DNA from: Lactococcus termiticola
GTDB lineage: Bacteria > Bacillota > Bacilli > Lactobacillales > Streptococcaceae
Length of the DNA stretch: 64,000 bases
Assembly (NCBI RefSeq): GCF_003116835.1
Contig: NZ_BFFO01000004.1
Span: 62,001-126,000 of the forward strand
Reading direction: 5' to 3'
Under the pieces are notes generated by a model. That model was not told the origin of the DNA. It searched no databases and saw nothing but the letters and a program-made list of their open reading frames with translations. The translations under genes were made by a program, and so were the position numbers. This document shows positions 128-38,633 of this stretch, piece by piece. Each line of letters starts with the position of its first letter. The first letter of the stretch is position 1.

Positions 128-718
128 ATGGAATTCAGACTCGCCAGGCCAGAAGATGCAGCAGAACTGTTGGCCATCTACAAGCCCTATGTCGAAAAGA
201 CGGCGATTACCTTTGAGTACGAGGTCCCAAGTCTCGAAGCATTTGAAGCAAGAATCAAGAGCATTTCAGCTCTTTTTCCTTATATCGTCGCTGTTGATGA
301 AGAAAGCGGAAAAATCCAAGGTTACGCCTACGCTGGTCGTTATCGTGAACGCAAGGCCTACGACTGGGTCGTTGAACTCTCGATATACCTTGCCGAAGAA
401 GCCAGAGGAAAAGGCCTTGGTAAGCCCCTATATCACCGCCTCCTCAAGCTCCTGACTGCCCTTAACTATCAGCGTGCCTACGCCTGTATCACCGTCCCTA
501 ATCCCGGTAGTATCCATTTCCACGAGAAGCTCGGCTTCAGCTTGATTGGCCAATTTAACGGCTCAGGCTACAAGTTTGAGCAGTGGTACGGGATTGCTTG
601 GATGGAGCTGGTCTTGCAGGAGGAGCAGGTCAAGCCTGTTTTAGGGATTGCTGACTTGGATTGGGATGTGATTGCTAGGATTTTGAGGGATATTGAGAAG
701 AATAGTATTGAAGATTAG
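128..718 (+). CDS. GNAT N-acetyltransferase, phosphinothricin-acetyltransferase (Pat/Bar) type
   Basis: A 196-residue acetyltransferase of the GNAT fold. It opens with FRLARPEDA, typical of the family, and has the acetyl-CoA pyrophosphate loop RGKGLG at residues 93-98 and the NPGSIHFHEKLGF motif at about 125-137, the signature of the Pat/Bar/YwnH subgroup that acetylates small amino-group substrates such as phosphinothricin or methionine sulfone analogues. The true substrate cannot be read from sequence. The ATG directly follows the der stop codon (TAA then ATG), so translation is probably coupled to der. The last 20 residues run past the usual family end. A small frameshifted reading frame begins at its stop. 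Confidence 0.85.
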   Translation: MEFRLARPEDAAELLAIYKPYVEKTAITFEYEVPSLEAFEARIKSISALFPYIVAVDEESGKIQGYAYAGRYRERKAYDWVVELSIYLAEEARGKGLGKPLYHRLLKLLTALNYQRAYACITVPNPGSIHFHEKLGFSLIGQFNGSGYKFEQWYGIAWMELVLQEEQVKPVLGIADLDWDVIARILRDIEKNSIED

Positions 719-912
719 ATGAGGATTGATGCGGAGTTTTATGAGAATCAATCAGAGGAACAGTTCGCAGAAGGATTGGGCCTAAGTATAGATGACTATA
801 GGTTTTATCAACAGCATCATGAGTTAATATTAAAGTGTTTGATATCAATCGCTCAGATAACAAAATTCAAGACATGATAGCCCGCTACAAAGAAAAAAAC
901 AATCTCAAATAA
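719..912 (+). pseudogene. Frameshifted copy of a small acidic orphan protein
   Basis: From ATG 719 the frame reads RIDAEFYENQSEEQFAEGL, then LSIDDYRFYQQHHELILK, and stops early. In the -1 frame it continues KVFDINRSDNKIQDMIARYK to TAA at 910-912. Joined, the two parts match the intact 73-residue protein at 8438-8659 along its length (DAEFYE, a DYxFY core, a final DMIxxYKxKN). A single-base indel near 830-840 therefore appears to have broken a paralogue. The start overlaps no other gene and directly follows the acetyltransferase stop. No function is known. A sequencing error or programmed frameshift is possible but there is no obvious slippery heptamer. A structured repeat begins 15 bases downstream. 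Confidence 0.6.
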
Positions 913-927
913 TCAGACAGAGTGGAA

Positions 928-1041
928 GAAATCCCGCCCCAATGCTGTGAAAAAGACAAAAGTCGAGACCGAAAGGGCTCGACTTTTAGCAATGAAAGCG
1001 AAGCTTTGCTTGCGTGTCTCACAGCATTGGGGCGGGATTTC
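928..1041 (+). repeat. Three-stem intergenic element, copy A (forward)
   Basis: A perfect 23-bp inverted repeat (928-950 and 1019-1041) encloses two hairpins. The first is at 958-987: AAAAGTCGAG pairs with CTCGACTTTT and is capped by CC-GAAA-GG. The second is at 989-1013: GCAATG, AAAGC, loop GAA, GCTTT, GCTTGC. The outer ends carry GTGGAAGAAAT on the left and ATTTCTGGAACGG on the right. The same core with different arms recurs at 8279, 8705, 45098 and 45302, so this is a dispersed family. It could act as an RNA or as a folded DNA element. It may also terminate upstream transcription. Confidence 0.8.
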
Positions 1042-1118
1042 TGGAACGGTCCCTTTGCATAGAGATACCGCCTAATGTTCGCATTGCTACTTTAGCAGTA
1101 TCTTCTAAGCACCTGGAG

Positions 1119-4426: not shown

Positions 4427-4453
4427 AAAAGCCTGCAGATGCCAGGCTTTTTT
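4427..4453 (+). terminator. Rho-independent terminator after the ABC exporter
   Basis: AAAAGCCTG, loop, CAGGCTTTTTT. It starts four bases after the permease stop. Confidence 0.88.
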
Positions 4454-4511
4454 GCTAGAAGTTTTGAGCAAGCAATGCGGCCAAGGGAAGCATTGAGGCC
4501 AAAAACACTTC
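4454..4511 (-). repeat. Minor repeat family, copy E2
   Basis: Directly after the terminator, GCTAGAAGTTTTGAGC leads into AGCAATGCGGCCAAGGGAAG and CATTGAGGCC, closing with an imperfect partner of GAAGTTTT. The same sequence recurs at 15363-15420 and, more diverged, at 1119-1185. Placement immediately after a terminator is the same for E2 and E3. Confidence 0.55.
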
Positions 4512-4571
4512 AAAGAAGCTGTCAGATGGAAAAAGCAGAGCCTTCTTCATTTTTGACATTTGCTTTTCTTT

Positions 4572-7475: not shown

Positions 7476-8249
7476 ATGGCTTTATTAAAGATTGAATATT
7501 ACTCAGAGGTCCTCGAGATGAATCGACAGGTCAATGTCATTTATCCTGAAAGCTCAAAGGTGGAGGCCATCACAAAGAGCGACATCCCCGTCCTCTATCT
7601 CCTGCATGGCATGTCAGGCAATGAAAACTCTTGGCTACAACGCTCGGCCATCGAGCGTCTGGTCCGCCATAGCAACCTGGCGATTGTCATGCCTTCGACC
7701 GATTTGGGCTTTTATGTCAACACGACATACGGCATGCACTATTATGATGCGATTGCCAAAGAACTCCCTCAGGTCATCAGGAATTTCTTTCCGAACCTGT
7801 CTCAAAAACCAGAGAAGAACTTCATCGCTGGCCTGTCAATGGGCGGTTACGGTGCCTACCGGATTGCCTTATCTAGCAACTATTTCAGCCATGCGGCCAG
7901 TCTCTCTGGTGCCCTCAGCTTTGAAGGGATGGAGGCAGCACAAGAAGCCAACCCAGCCTACTGGAATGGTCTCTTTGGAAGCTTAGAAGCCTTTGAGCAA
8001 TCCGACAACAACCTCAATAAGCTTCTAAAAGCCCCAGCCAGCAAGCCAAAACTCTACGCCTGGTGTGGCCATCAAGACTACCTCTACCCAGCCAACCAAG
8101 CCATCGCAGAAAAACTCCAAAGCGCAGGCTTCGATCTGACCTACGAGACCGCCGACGGAACCCACGAATGGTACTATTGGGCCAAGCAAATCGAACGCGT
8201 CCTGGAATGGTTGCCGATTGATTATGTGAAGGAAGAGCGCTTGAGTTGA
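7476..8249 (+). CDS. estA: Tributyrin esterase EstA
   Basis: A 257-residue cytosolic alpha/beta-hydrolase of the esterase D/EstA family. Nucleophile elbow GLSMGGYG near residue 118, oxyanion region HGMSGNENSW near 45, acid region DYLYPANQAI near 200 and catalytic His in DGTHEWYYW near 229. The opening MALLKIEYYSEVLEMNRQVN is close to lactococcal EstA, which cleaves short-chain acyl esters and synthesises flavour esters. The open frame extends to TTG 7455, but AGAAAGGAAGC lies just before ATG 7476, so that start is preferred. It has its own extended -10 and no terminator before the next repeat. Confidence 0.9.
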   Translation: MALLKIEYYSEVLEMNRQVNVIYPESSKVEAITKSDIPVLYLLHGMSGNENSWLQRSAIERLVRHSNLAIVMPSTDLGFYVNTTYGMHYYDAIAKELPQVIRNFFPNLSQKPEKNFIAGLSMGGYGAYRIALSSNYFSHAASLSGALSFEGMEAAQEANPAYWNGLFGSLEAFEQSDNNLNKLLKAPASKPKLYAWCGHQDYLYPANQAIAEKLQSAGFDLTYETADGTHEWYYWAKQIERVLEWLPIDYVKEERLS

Positions 8250-8278
8250 TAGGCGCTCTGCTGGAGCCGTTTCGTTCC

Positions 8279-8396
8279 GGAAAACAGGGGAAAGCTACTA
8301 TGTGGCCCGCAAGCAAACCTTCGGTTTCATTGCTAAATGTCGAGCCCTAGCGGTCTCGCCATTTGCCTTATTCCATAGTAGTTTCCCCTGTTTTCC
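8279..8396 (-). repeat. Three-stem intergenic element, copy B (reverse)
   Basis: Arms at 8279-8302 and 8374-8396 pair over 23 bp with one bulged G. Read on the minus strand, the core is GGCGAGACC-GCTA-GGGCTCGAC, then AGCAATG, AAACC, GAA, GGTTT, GCTTGC. The outer boxes are GTGGAGGAAA on one side and TTTCCGGAACGAAACG on the other. The arm sequence is unrelated to that of the other copies while the core is nearly identical. It lies just upstream of the small acidic gene at 8438. Confidence 0.8.
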
Positions 8397-8437
8397 TCCA
8401 CTGCACTGTTGATGACTAGGTAATCAGGAGATATAAA

Positions 8438-8659
8438 ATGACTGATAGACCATTATCGCTGGAAGAAAAGTGGGTAAAGGATGCCGAGTTTTATGAATCT
8501 ATGTCCGACGAGGAGGCTGCTAAAAGCCTGGAACTTTCACTCGAGGATTATAAGTTTTATAAAGAGCATACGTTTGAAATCATAAGATTCGCAGAGCCTG
8601 GAAAGTTCAATAAGGCAATCGACATGATAGAACACTACAAAGCCAAAAATAAGATTTAG
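8438..8659 (+). CDS. Small acidic orphan protein, 73 residues
   Basis: The frame encodes a charged, helical, soluble protein without signal peptide or membrane segment. Features are LSLEEKWVKDAEFYESMSDE, an LSLEDYKFYKEH core and a basic tail DMIEHYKAKNKI. AGGAGATATAAA precedes the ATG at a normal distance. A broken paralogue lies at 719-912, which argues that the frame is real. I do not recognise a family. It is flanked by two copies of the three-stem element (8279-8396 reverse, 8705-8845 forward), and the broken paralogue is followed by a third copy. A functional link to the element, for example binding it, is only a conjecture. Confidence 0.65.
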   Translation: MTDRPLSLEEKWVKDAEFYESMSDEEAAKSLELSLEDYKFYKEHTFEIIRFAEPGKFNKAIDMIEHYKAKNKI

Positions 8660-8704
8660 CTACCGCTACTAAGAAACTCCAAACTTTAATAGCGACCAAA
8701 TCTC

Positions 8705-8845
8705 AGACCTGCAGAGCGGAATAAATATTGCAATTTACTGTGGCATCAGGCAGATTTGAAGACCTCAGGGCTTCAAATCTAGCAATGAAACCGAAGGTTT
8801 GCTTGTGGCCCCACAGTAAGTTGCAATATTTATGGAGCGAGGTCT
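8705..8845 (+). repeat. Three-stem intergenic element, copy C (forward)
   Basis: Arms at 8721-8743 and 8811-8833 pair over 23 bp with one G-T wobble, and AGACCT/AGGTCT adds a further outer stem (8705-8710 and 8840-8845). Hairpin one, AGATTTGAAG with CTTCAAATCT, is perfectly paired yet differs from the other copies. Hairpin two is GCAATG, AAACC, GAA, GGTTT, GCTTG. The outer box GGAGCG replaces the usual GGAACG. It lies 81 bases upstream of the atp promoter. Confidence 0.8.
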
Positions 8846-8925
8846 CCTAAAGCCGTGGAAATCGCTTCTTCAAATAAGCCCAAACCAGCCCTGTGAAAAA
8901 ACCCCAAAAAAAGCTGACCTTTATT

Positions 8926-8954
8926 TTGACATCAAAATTTTTTAGGTCTATAAT
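8926..8954 (+). promoter_or_regulatory. Strong sigma-A promoter of the atp operon
   Basis: Consensus TTGACA (8926-8931), 17-bp spacer, consensus TATAAT (8949-8954). The start of atpE lies about 50 bases downstream, behind AGAAAGAGG. Confidence 0.9.
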
Positions 8955-8992
8955 AATAGAGTAATTGAAAACGTGCATTAAAGCACAAATAG

Positions 8993-9220
<228 letters not shown>

Positions 9221-15337: not shown

Positions 15338-15362
15338 AAGCCTATCTTTGATAGGCTTTTTT
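15338..15362 (+). terminator. Rho-independent terminator of the atp operon
   Basis: AAGCCTATC, loop TTT, GATAGGCTTTTTT, 13 bases after the atpC stop. Confidence 0.93.
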
Positions 15363-15420
15363 GCTAGAAGTTTTGAGCTAGCGATAGGACCAAGGGGAGC
15401 ATTGAGGGCCAGAACTCTCC
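15363..15420 (-). repeat. Minor repeat family, copy E3
   Basis: GCTAGAAGTTTTGAGCTAGC, then GATAGGACCAAGGGGAGCAT and TGAGGGCC. The first 16 bases match E2 at 4454 exactly, and like E2 it starts directly after a terminator T run. It runs into the truncated three-stem element that follows. Confidence 0.5.
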
Positions 15421-15435
15421 AAGAGAATTTGAGGA

Positions 15436-15541
15436 TAAGGAAAACGCAGCTTTCCTCCTTCCATCGCTAAATGTCGAGCCCGCTGATCTCGCCAGTTGCC
15501 TGTTTTCAAAGCGGGTCCATGGAATTTCTTCCATTCCACTC
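15436..15541 (-). repeat. Three-stem element, degenerate copy D (reverse)
   Basis: On the minus strand this shows the outer box GTGGAATGGAAGAAAT, an arm GAAATTCCATGGACCCGC, then GGCGAGATCAGCGGGCTCGA and the start of the second hairpin, AGCGATG. The opposite arm is missing; the E3 repeat lies there instead. The element therefore looks recombined or decayed. Between 15541 and 15650 I see only AGTTATTTCTATAACT, a short palindrome. Confidence 0.5.
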
Positions 15542-15693
15542 CTGCTAGCTATACGGGTTTTAGTTATTTCTATAACTCCGAGCATTTCGACAGACCTCCG
15601 ACCACTGTCTATTCCATGGGCGAGTCGTCTGACAGTCACCTTCAAATATGTTAAAATATAAGGAGTTTATAATAGACAGAGAAAGGAGGAGCG

Positions 15694-37962: not shown

Positions 37963-38007
37963 CTGACGATTTTAGGATTTCCAAAACTATGAAAACCAGC
38001 CAGAATC

Positions 38008-38016
38008 TGCTACAAT
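38008..38016 (+). promoter_or_regulatory. Extended -10 of queT
   Basis: TGC-TACAAT, about 22 bases before the riboswitch aptamer. Confidence 0.45.
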
Positions 38017-38037
38017 AAAAAGGTCGCAAAAGCGATC

Positions 38038-38096
38038 CTTGGGACTTATCAACCTTTGCCCAAGCATATTAGAAGCAGCGAAGACTGCTAAAGGAG
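38038..38096 (+). promoter_or_regulatory. preQ1-II riboswitch
   Basis: CTTGGG (38038) pairs with CCCAAG (P2); the conserved CATATTAGAA follows, then a small hairpin GCAG/CTGC (P4), then TAAAGGAG. CCTTT in the P2 loop can pair with AAAGG at the end (P3 pseudoknot), which hides the ribosome binding site of queT when prequeuosine-1 is bound. Order, spacing and the CATATTA motif are those of the COG4708/preQ1-II class known from Streptococcaceae. It controls translation of the gene starting six bases later. Confidence 0.93.
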
Positions 38097-38102
38097 CATA
38101 TT

Positions 38103-38633
38103 TTGGAAAATACCAACTCACACTTTTCAGTCAACGGACTGGTGCGGGGGGCGATTGTTTGTGCCCTCTATATCATCGTGACCTATCTCATGGCCTCATT
38201 TAATCTGGCAGTCGGACCGATTCAGTTCCGCCTCTCAGAAATGTTTAATTTTATGGCCTTCTACAACAAACGCTATCTCTGGGCAGTCACGCTCGGTGTG
38301 GCCATCTCAAATGTCATCGTGCCTGGTAACCTTGGCCTGGTGGACTTTCTGGTCGGTGGAGGATCAACCCTGATTTTCCTGGGACTGGGTGTCCTGATTA
38401 CCAAGCGACTTGAAGGCAAGAGAATCCTTGGCGGTGCAGTCAATCTGCGTTTCCTGGTCTTCAGTGTCTTCTTTGCCATCAGCATGGTGACCATTGCGGC
38501 AGAGCTACACTTTATGCTTCAGCTGCCCTTCTGGATCACCTGGGCAACGCTGGCAGGCGGTGAGTTTGTCAGCCTGATCATCGGGATGTTTATCATCGAG
38601 CAGATTAACCGACATATTGATTTAAGGCAATAA
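38103..38633 (+). CDS. queT: Queuosine precursor (preQ1) transporter QueT
   Basis: A 176-residue membrane protein with about five to six helices, the substrate-binding S component of an ECF transporter for queuosine precursors. RGAIVCALYIIVTYLMASF opens it, GPIQFRLSEMFNFMAFYNKRY near residue 38 and GNLGLVDFLVGGGSTL near 75 are family hallmarks. It starts at TTG six bases behind the AAAGGAG of a preQ1-II riboswitch, which confirms the substrate class. A terminator follows directly. Confidence 0.94.
   Translation: MENTNSHFSVNGLVRGAIVCALYIIVTYLMASFNLAVGPIQFRLSEMFNFMAFYNKRYLWAVTLGVAISNVIVPGNLGLVDFLVGGGSTLIFLGLGVLITKRLEGKRILGGAVNLRFLVFSVFFAISMVTIAAELHFMLQLPFWITWATLAGGEFVSLIIGMFIIEQINRHIDLRQ

What the first reader, a model, noticed from the sequence alone, without database searches (positions are those of the whole stretch)
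8279..8845. Small acidic gene framed by two copies of the element, and its broken paralogue next to a third
The 73-residue gene at 8438-8659 is bounded by copy B (reverse) and copy C (forward). Its frameshifted paralogue at 719-912 is followed after 15 bases by copy A. Two of two paralogues beside elements is suggestive: the unit could be a small protein plus structured RNA, for example an RNA-binding or toxin-antitoxin pair, or a mobile cassette.
Basis: inference. Interest (0 to 1): 0.68.

Follow-up and report, generated by a model that had tools for sequence, protein, structure and literature searches.

The report
Orphan gene inside a repeat pair
A small protein gene with no relatives found elsewhere sits between two inverted copies of a folded DNA repeat that occurs about 150 times in this bacterium; the gene looks like a passenger of the repeats rather than their working partner.

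Summary
A 73-codon gene (8438-8659) lies between element copies B (8262-8413, reverse) and C (8704-8850, forward); a frameshifted paralogue ends just before copy A (910-1059). The element is real: about 150 nt, about 150 copies (156 listed) in this 1.73-Mb genome, 95.7% of pair cells kept with strong covariation, no Rfam match. Close neighbours are nearly always divergent (44 of 45 under 400 nt), so B/C is one doublet of 44, unusual in its 290-nt spacer. The B-gene-C block (589 nt) interrupts a gene order that relatives keep with a 165-215-nt gap. The protein's only homologue found is the relic: none in 17 other genus genomes, 394 other genomes of the order, or the plasmid, phage, viral and species-genome scans; family genomes that carry the element lack it. 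Both paralogues lie beside elements, but n is 2, about 13% of ORFs do too, and 154 of 156 elements have no recognisable copy. A protein-plus-RNA or toxin-antitoxin unit is not supported; a repeat-bounded passenger is the best reading. The repeat is the more notable object: its core occurs across Streptococcus, and its long stems show no G.T over A.C bias, hinting at DNA-level folding.

The parts
8262..8413 (-). Element copy B, left half of the divergent doublet; its 3' end lies 12 nt after the stop of the gene read as estA (8249), its 5' end faces the 73-aa gene
   Evidence: R1 153.0 bits; sequence
8438..8659 (+). Orphan 73-aa acidic gene, predicted all-helical; AGGAG 7 nt before the ATG
   Evidence: AlphaFold2 mean pLDDT 79.9
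8704..8850 (+). Element copy C, right half of the doublet, 44 nt after the gene's stop
   Evidence: R1 132.4 bits; BLASTN with B
8250..9007 (.). Gap between the genes read as estA and atpE, 758 nt here against 165-215 nt in 12 relatives; 169 nt without 8262-8850
8926..8954 (+). TTGACA-17-TATAAT before atpE, intact downstream of C
   Evidence: a similar TTGACA box is visible in the relatives' gap sequences
686..912 (+). Broken paralogue: in-frame TAG 716-718 and frameshift near 840; its start is fused in frame to the acetyltransferase end
128..718 (+). GNAT (phosphinothricin acetyltransferase-like) gene, extended about 9 residues into the relic
   Evidence: 10 relatives' matches end at residues 172-191, seven of them at 186-187; four printed C-termini stop there; PDB relatives
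910..1059 (+). Element copy A, without a partner, directly after the relic
   Evidence: R1 146.1 bits
45081..45230 (-). Element copy D, left half of a second doublet in the window, without cargo
   Evidence: R1 153.5 bits
45285..45432 (+). Element copy E, right half of that doublet (54-nt spacer)
   Evidence: R1 121.2 bits

Best explanation
The 73-residue gene is a real but orphan gene carried as a passenger in the spacer of one divergent doublet of an interspersed, structure-conserved repeat. Shown: the repeat family, its doublet arrangement, and the B-gene-C block as extra DNA in a gene order that relatives keep. Inferred: the block arrived as repeat-associated DNA just after the stop of the upstream gene and spared the atpE promoter; no convincing promoter was seen for the gene, so it would be translated from read-through of the upstream gene, with folded B before it and folded C after it. 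Inferred with low confidence: the protein is a small DNA-binding (helix-turn-helix-like) protein that the elements do not need, and one of the two paralogues has already decayed, as expected for cargo.
For: Only two homologues found: two in the own genome, 0 of 17 other genus genomes, eight chance-level matches (E 0.024-0.052) among 294 other family genomes, 0 of 394 other genomes of the order, none confirmed in genome contigs, viral contigs, plasmids or phages. Elements number about 150 (156 listed), with 44 doublets. Of 15 relative loci with the upstream gene, 13 keep atpE next to it, gap 165-215 nt in the 12 measured by a simple start-codon rule. The only other wide-spacer doublet (331 nt, C6:94748-95078) also holds a small ORF, DUF6290/ribbon-helix-helix-like (below the curated cut-off) and broken by a stop. 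Gene GC 0.387 lies below the 2% quantile (0.398) of window ORFs. The relic is broken.
Against: Both paralogues, not one, lie directly before a same-strand element, a position shared by only 20 of about 1382 ORFs of 100 aa or more. A and C alone among 156 elements share CAGAG at -9..-5, which could mark joint duplication of gene and element. No target-site duplication was found and no empty site from the same species was available, so insertion as one block is not shown. Two of the 15 relative loci do not have atpE there, and the relatives are only 62-70% identical in the upstream protein, so exact edges cannot be read from them.
Confidence: 0.55

Rival explanations
1. Independent events: the gene came to the site first, and two elements later inserted on either side, giving a divergent arrangement by their usual orientation rule.
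For: The next-largest divergent spacer is 132 nt, so the two wide pairs (290 and 331 nt) stand apart. A rough estimate of my own, from no call (156 elements at random on 1.73 Mb, one neighbour in four divergent), expects about 1.4 divergent neighbours within 400 nt. Partner halves are no more alike than random halves (0.596 against 0.615).
Against: B lies 12 nt after the upstream stop, a common place for left halves of doublets, and the extra DNA equals B plus spacer plus C.
Confidence: 0.27
2. Gene plus downstream element is a minimal mobile cassette that moved twice, comparable in layout to an integron cassette (ORF followed by a folded recombination site).
For: Both paralogues are followed on the same strand by an element within 45 nt; CAGAG shared by A and C only; the relic joins the acetyltransferase end at about its own start codon.
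Against: A and C are not closer than average (0.623; 43% of pairs are more alike), nor are their 27-nt flanks (64% of pairs at least as alike), though gene and relic are themselves near saturation, so the test has little power. No convincing third relic lies beside any other element (best E 0.19).
Confidence: 0.1
3. A functional protein-RNA pair, for example a type III toxin-antitoxin or an RNA-binding regulator acting on the element.
For: Proximity of both paralogues; a structured element; gene and relic diverged under apparent purifying selection (dN/dS 0.25 over 45 codons, but dS 2.7 is close to saturation).
Against: One intact gene against about 150 elements; no tandem repeats; no family match; family genomes with element matches lack the gene.
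Confidence: 0.05
4. The ORF is a chance reading frame, not a gene.
For: No relatives found outside this genome.
Against: A paralogue similar in protein sequence (E 3.4e-8), a Shine-Dalgarno sequence, and a fairly confident helical model from one sequence.
Confidence: 0.03

Closest known systems
REPINs / REP doublets (PMC3116915; passages read)
   Same: Many intergenic hairpin repeats arranged as inverted doublets with a variable spacer, plus unpaired copies; compensatory changes
   Different: About 150 nt with a three-way fold; no Y1 transposase match in this genome; unpaired copies are not more diverged than paired ones
BOX, RUP and SPRITE repeats of Streptococcus pneumoniae (PMC3049150; abstract and sections 5, 7 and 9 read)
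   Same: BOX and RUP: over 100 folded interspersed repeats each in a Streptococcaceae genome; some BOX elements carry small ORFs that are transcribed; lineage-specific amplification
   Different: Those ORFs are made of repeat sequence, here the ORF is unique sequence between two copies; BOX is modular and BOX and RUP cause target-site duplications, none was seen here. The BOX models were not available for a direct test
Core in Streptococcus, e.g. between genes I read as purD and purE; possibly the pneumococcal sRNA SN47 (PMC2887815; passages read)
   Same: Same P2/P3 core by the covariance model, in L131 on the strand of both genes; SN47 is listed on the + strand between SP0051(+) and SP0052(+)
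   Different: Extra hairpin in the junction, different outer stem, few copies (5-25 matches in the five Streptococcus genomes searched more fully). That SP0051 is purD is recalled; the TIGR4 sequence was not compared
Integron gene cassettes with attC sites (recalled)
   Same: Short ORF followed by a site conserved in fold rather than sequence
   Different: Dispersed copies, many in divergent doublets, not an array; most elements do not follow an ORF closely

Membership tests
REPIN / RAYT system | Inverted doublets with short spacers | tested here: met
   44 of 45 neighbours under 400 nt are divergent, 42 of the 44 with spacers of 26-132 nt; 68 of 156 copies have no partner
REPIN / RAYT system | REP-associated tyrosine transposase (Y1_Tnp) in the genome | tested here: not met
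   0 matches to PF01797 at E 0.01 in the own genome (22 contigs); 6 of 14 control genomes ring
REPIN / RAYT system | Doublets more conserved than singlets | tested here: not met
   Mean identity 0.605 for 74 paired and 0.631 for 70 other copies in A3; some of the 70 have a weak partner outside A3, which blurs the test
BOX / RUP / SPRITE repeats | Match to the published repeat models | not tested
   The models are not held; Rfam 15 gives no match to B or C, even at E 5
BOX / RUP / SPRITE repeats | Target-site duplication (BOX, RUP) | tested here: inconclusive
   At most 2 of 34 doublets agree at any offset tried, but no empty site of the same species
Type III toxin-antitoxin | Tandem-repeat RNA antitoxin before the toxin gene (definition recalled) | tested here: not met
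   0 tandem arrays in 8200-9000
Type III toxin-antitoxin | Toxin of a known family | tested here: inconclusive
   No Pfam, NCBIfam, PHROGs or PADLOC match; absence of a match does not exclude a new toxin
Integron gene cassette | Tyrosine recombinase IntI | not tested
   No genome search was left for the integrase
Helix-turn-helix proteins | Significant fold match | tested here: inconclusive
   Best Foldseek E 1.4 in the PDB and 1.1 in viral models; best Z 3.2 to an NtrC1 DNA-binding domain, rmsd 3.4 over 43 residues

The most novel reading that the evidence does not exclude
The 73-residue protein is a small DNA-binding factor that recognises the folded element, and gene plus element is the minimal mobile cassette from which some 150 gene-free copies were spread, a folded-DNA mobility system without a known transposase.
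Probability: 0.05. Interest if true: 0.85.

Novelty: new variant of a known kind. Interest (0 to 1): 0.45.

Why it matters
The gene-element link itself is probably incidental. The repeat is not: a 150-nt, three-way, covarying element with about 150 copies, a near-strict divergent doublet rule, no Rfam match, and a core found in many Streptococcus genomes. If its pairing is kept at the DNA level, as the lack of strand bias in the long stems hints, it would be a case of folded-DNA repeats kept without a transposase that I could recognise; if kept as RNA, it would be an unusually amplified structured RNA in a small genome.

Tried and rejected
Protein family searches with the 73-aa protein: nothing in Pfam, NCBIfam, PHROGs, PADLOC. 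Weak family-level hits at E 0.024-0.052 in 8 genomes are what 295 searches give by chance, and were dropped. Fold searches: helix-turn-helix domains recur but never significantly. RAYT idea: no Y1_Tnp. Target-site duplication: none. Partner similarity within 37 doublets of A3: not raised. Promoter for the gene: only a 9-of-12 match that overlaps the start codon, and a terminator-like site at 8255-8267 that overlaps the edge of B, both at chance level. A third relic of the gene near other elements: best E 0.19, taken as chance. CAGAC near A and C is not special (7 of 156). First G.T/A.C counts by ungapped arms and by single folds were misaligned and not used; a count over all cells of the covariance alignment gives 138 and 109, and at isolated mismatches 100 and 84. 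Literature: six searches listed no paper that I recognised as describing this repeat; ScRE and sanguinis-hairpin in PMC2864571 (passages only) are named Streptococcus motifs without Rfam accessions and could be the Streptococcus core, which I could not check. PMC6212727 (passages) gave nothing on the purD-purE gap.

Rows dropped before counts: the 156 elements are 144 of the 148 genome matches (four below 30 bits dropped) plus 12 added (one of them at 23.7 bits; a few weaker or isolated ones left out). One of the 156 (window 15394-15546, 33 bits) may belong to another family. One search scored only 150 candidates, so it can miss copies. A3 holds 147 rows, 146 distinct, including a few repeats of one place and one antisense row; one search reduced them to 144 places. 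The ORF background uses a simple longest-ORF rule, not a gene caller.

Names: estA, comEC, atpE, purD, purE and rfbB are my reading of the translations, not family searches; only the acetyltransferase was compared with known proteins.

Full report
What is there. The window is part of a 1.73-Mb, 22-contig genome from a genus with 17 other held genomes. Genus g5 of the same family is Streptococcus: contig lengths of G083 and G089 equal those of S. mitis SK642 and S. peroris ATCC 700780. Copies A to E fold into the same form: conserved flanks, a variable outer stem of about 23 pairs, and two inner hairpins, P2 (GAGACC..GGGCTC) and P3 (AGCAATG..GCTTG). The flanks GTGGAGTGGA and GGAACGNAACGG are part of the fold: two 2-bp helices between purine-rich 3x3 loops, which covary as G-C to A-T and T-A to C-G.

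The repeat. Model R1 was built from 15 copies, A, B, C and D among them. It finds 148 matches in the own genome (at most 150 candidates scored) and none in the 17 other genus genomes. A search of 92 fetched stretches adds partners, giving 156 listed copies. On 146 distinct rows 95.7% of cells are paired, with 1710 double changes against a mean of 464 in shuffles; the alignment was fitted to the structure, so it leans that way, but sliding the partners by 1-3 columns drops the covariation score from 0.618 to 0.106 or less. Rfam has no match to B or C, even at E 5.

Doublets. Of 45 neighbouring copies under 400 nt apart, 44 are divergent, 5' ends facing, and one is tandem; 68 copies have no partner. 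B/C is one doublet, D/E another. Divergent spacers run from 26 to 132 nt except two: B/C (290) and one in contig C6 (331), and both of these hold a small ORF. Partner halves are no more alike than random copies (37 doublets, 0.596 against 0.615), and copies without a partner in the alignment are slightly more alike than paired ones (0.631 against 0.605), against the REPIN prediction. No target-site duplication was seen in 34 doublets.

Strand. At isolated mismatches inside helices G.T and A.C are about equal (100 and 84, p 0.27). The outer stem gives 59 and 60, P2 13 and 15, but P3 16 and 4 and the flanks 12 and 5. Selection on one RNA strand should favour G.U, so the long stems show no sign of it while P3 and the flanks may; four groups were looked at, so this is a hint in either direction.

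The gene. The ORF has a Shine-Dalgarno sequence. AlphaFold2 from the single sequence gives five helices, mean pLDDT 79.9. Fold matches are largely helix-turn-helix domains without significance. Gene and relic match with E 3.4e-8; pN 0.438, pS 0.729, dN/dS about 0.25 with dS near saturation. No homologue was found elsewhere: 17 other genus genomes, 294 other family genomes above chance, 394 other genomes of the order, genome contigs and viral contigs (these reach close relatives only), plasmids and phages.

The site. Relatives keep the order that I read as comEC-estA-atpE: atpE follows in 13 of 15 loci, with a gap of 165-215 nt in the 12 measured. Here the gap is 758 nt and would be 169 nt without 8262-8850. 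A perfect TTGACA-17-TATAAT lies intact beyond C. At the relic, the acetyltransferase matches of 10 relatives end at residues 172-191, seven of them at 186-187, and here the frame runs on to 196, about 9 residues into the relic. The TetR-like gene beyond A was not found in the fetched flanks of the relatives' acetyltransferase, so that site is probably rearranged.

Is the association real? An element lies within 200 nt of 178 of about 1382 ORFs. Two of two is suggestive at best, and the paralogues are not independent. The tighter rule, a same-strand element within 60 nt after the stop, holds for 20 of about 1382 and for both paralogues, but was chosen after seeing them. A and C share a flank pentamer found in no other copy (2 of 156), yet the copies as a whole and their 27-nt flanks are not closer than average. 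I therefore leave joint movement of gene and element open and do not claim it.

Elsewhere. Full-length matches to the element occur in genera g2 and g9 (21, 5 and 37 matches in G027, G040 and G062), with mostly core-length matches in five Streptococcus genomes searched more fully (5, 5, 11, 15, 25). In the family sample 177 of 295 genomes, the own one included, match at E 1e-4 with ten candidates scored per genome. In some Streptococcus genomes the core lies between genes that I read as purD and purE, or before another operon gene, with an additional hairpin; 55 named stretches, all Streptococcus, carry one core pattern, and records near the window's own genome may have been left out. A pneumococcal transcript, SN47, is listed between SP0051 and SP0052 and may be the same element; the sequences were not compared.

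Verdict. The proposed unit of protein and RNA is not supported. A passenger gene in a repeat doublet is the most likely reading, and the repeat deserves its own study.

Noticed in passing
Contig C6:94748-95078 (within L041): The only other wide doublet spacer holds a DUF6290/ribbon-helix-helix-like ORF on the minus strand with an internal stop (E 1.8e-5, under the curated cut-off).
   Followed up: partly
C6:21584, C1:115805, C5:44547, C3:130656, C14:23776, C3:26526, C6:48008, C12:24781 (own genome): Several copies carry extra sequence on the 3' side (TTAGCGAGCATGGAGA..GAGATGGC-like), perhaps a longer subfamily of the element or a nested second element.
   Followed up: no
window 4429-4513 and 15338-15422, perhaps 1080-1200: A second repeat family (79% identity over 85 nt) includes terminator-like hairpins; a weak R1 match (33 bits) overlaps the copy at 15394-15546.
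   Followed up: no
window 38006-38105 (+): PreQ1-II riboswitch, 69.9 bits.
   Followed up: no
L131-L136 and other Streptococcus loci: The core of the element lies between genes read as purD and purE, and before an rfbB-like gene, in Streptococcus genomes, with an extra hairpin.
   Followed up: partly
window 128-718: Acetyltransferase reading frame extended by about 9 residues into the decayed paralogue, a gene end created by insertion or deletion and decay.
   Followed up: partly
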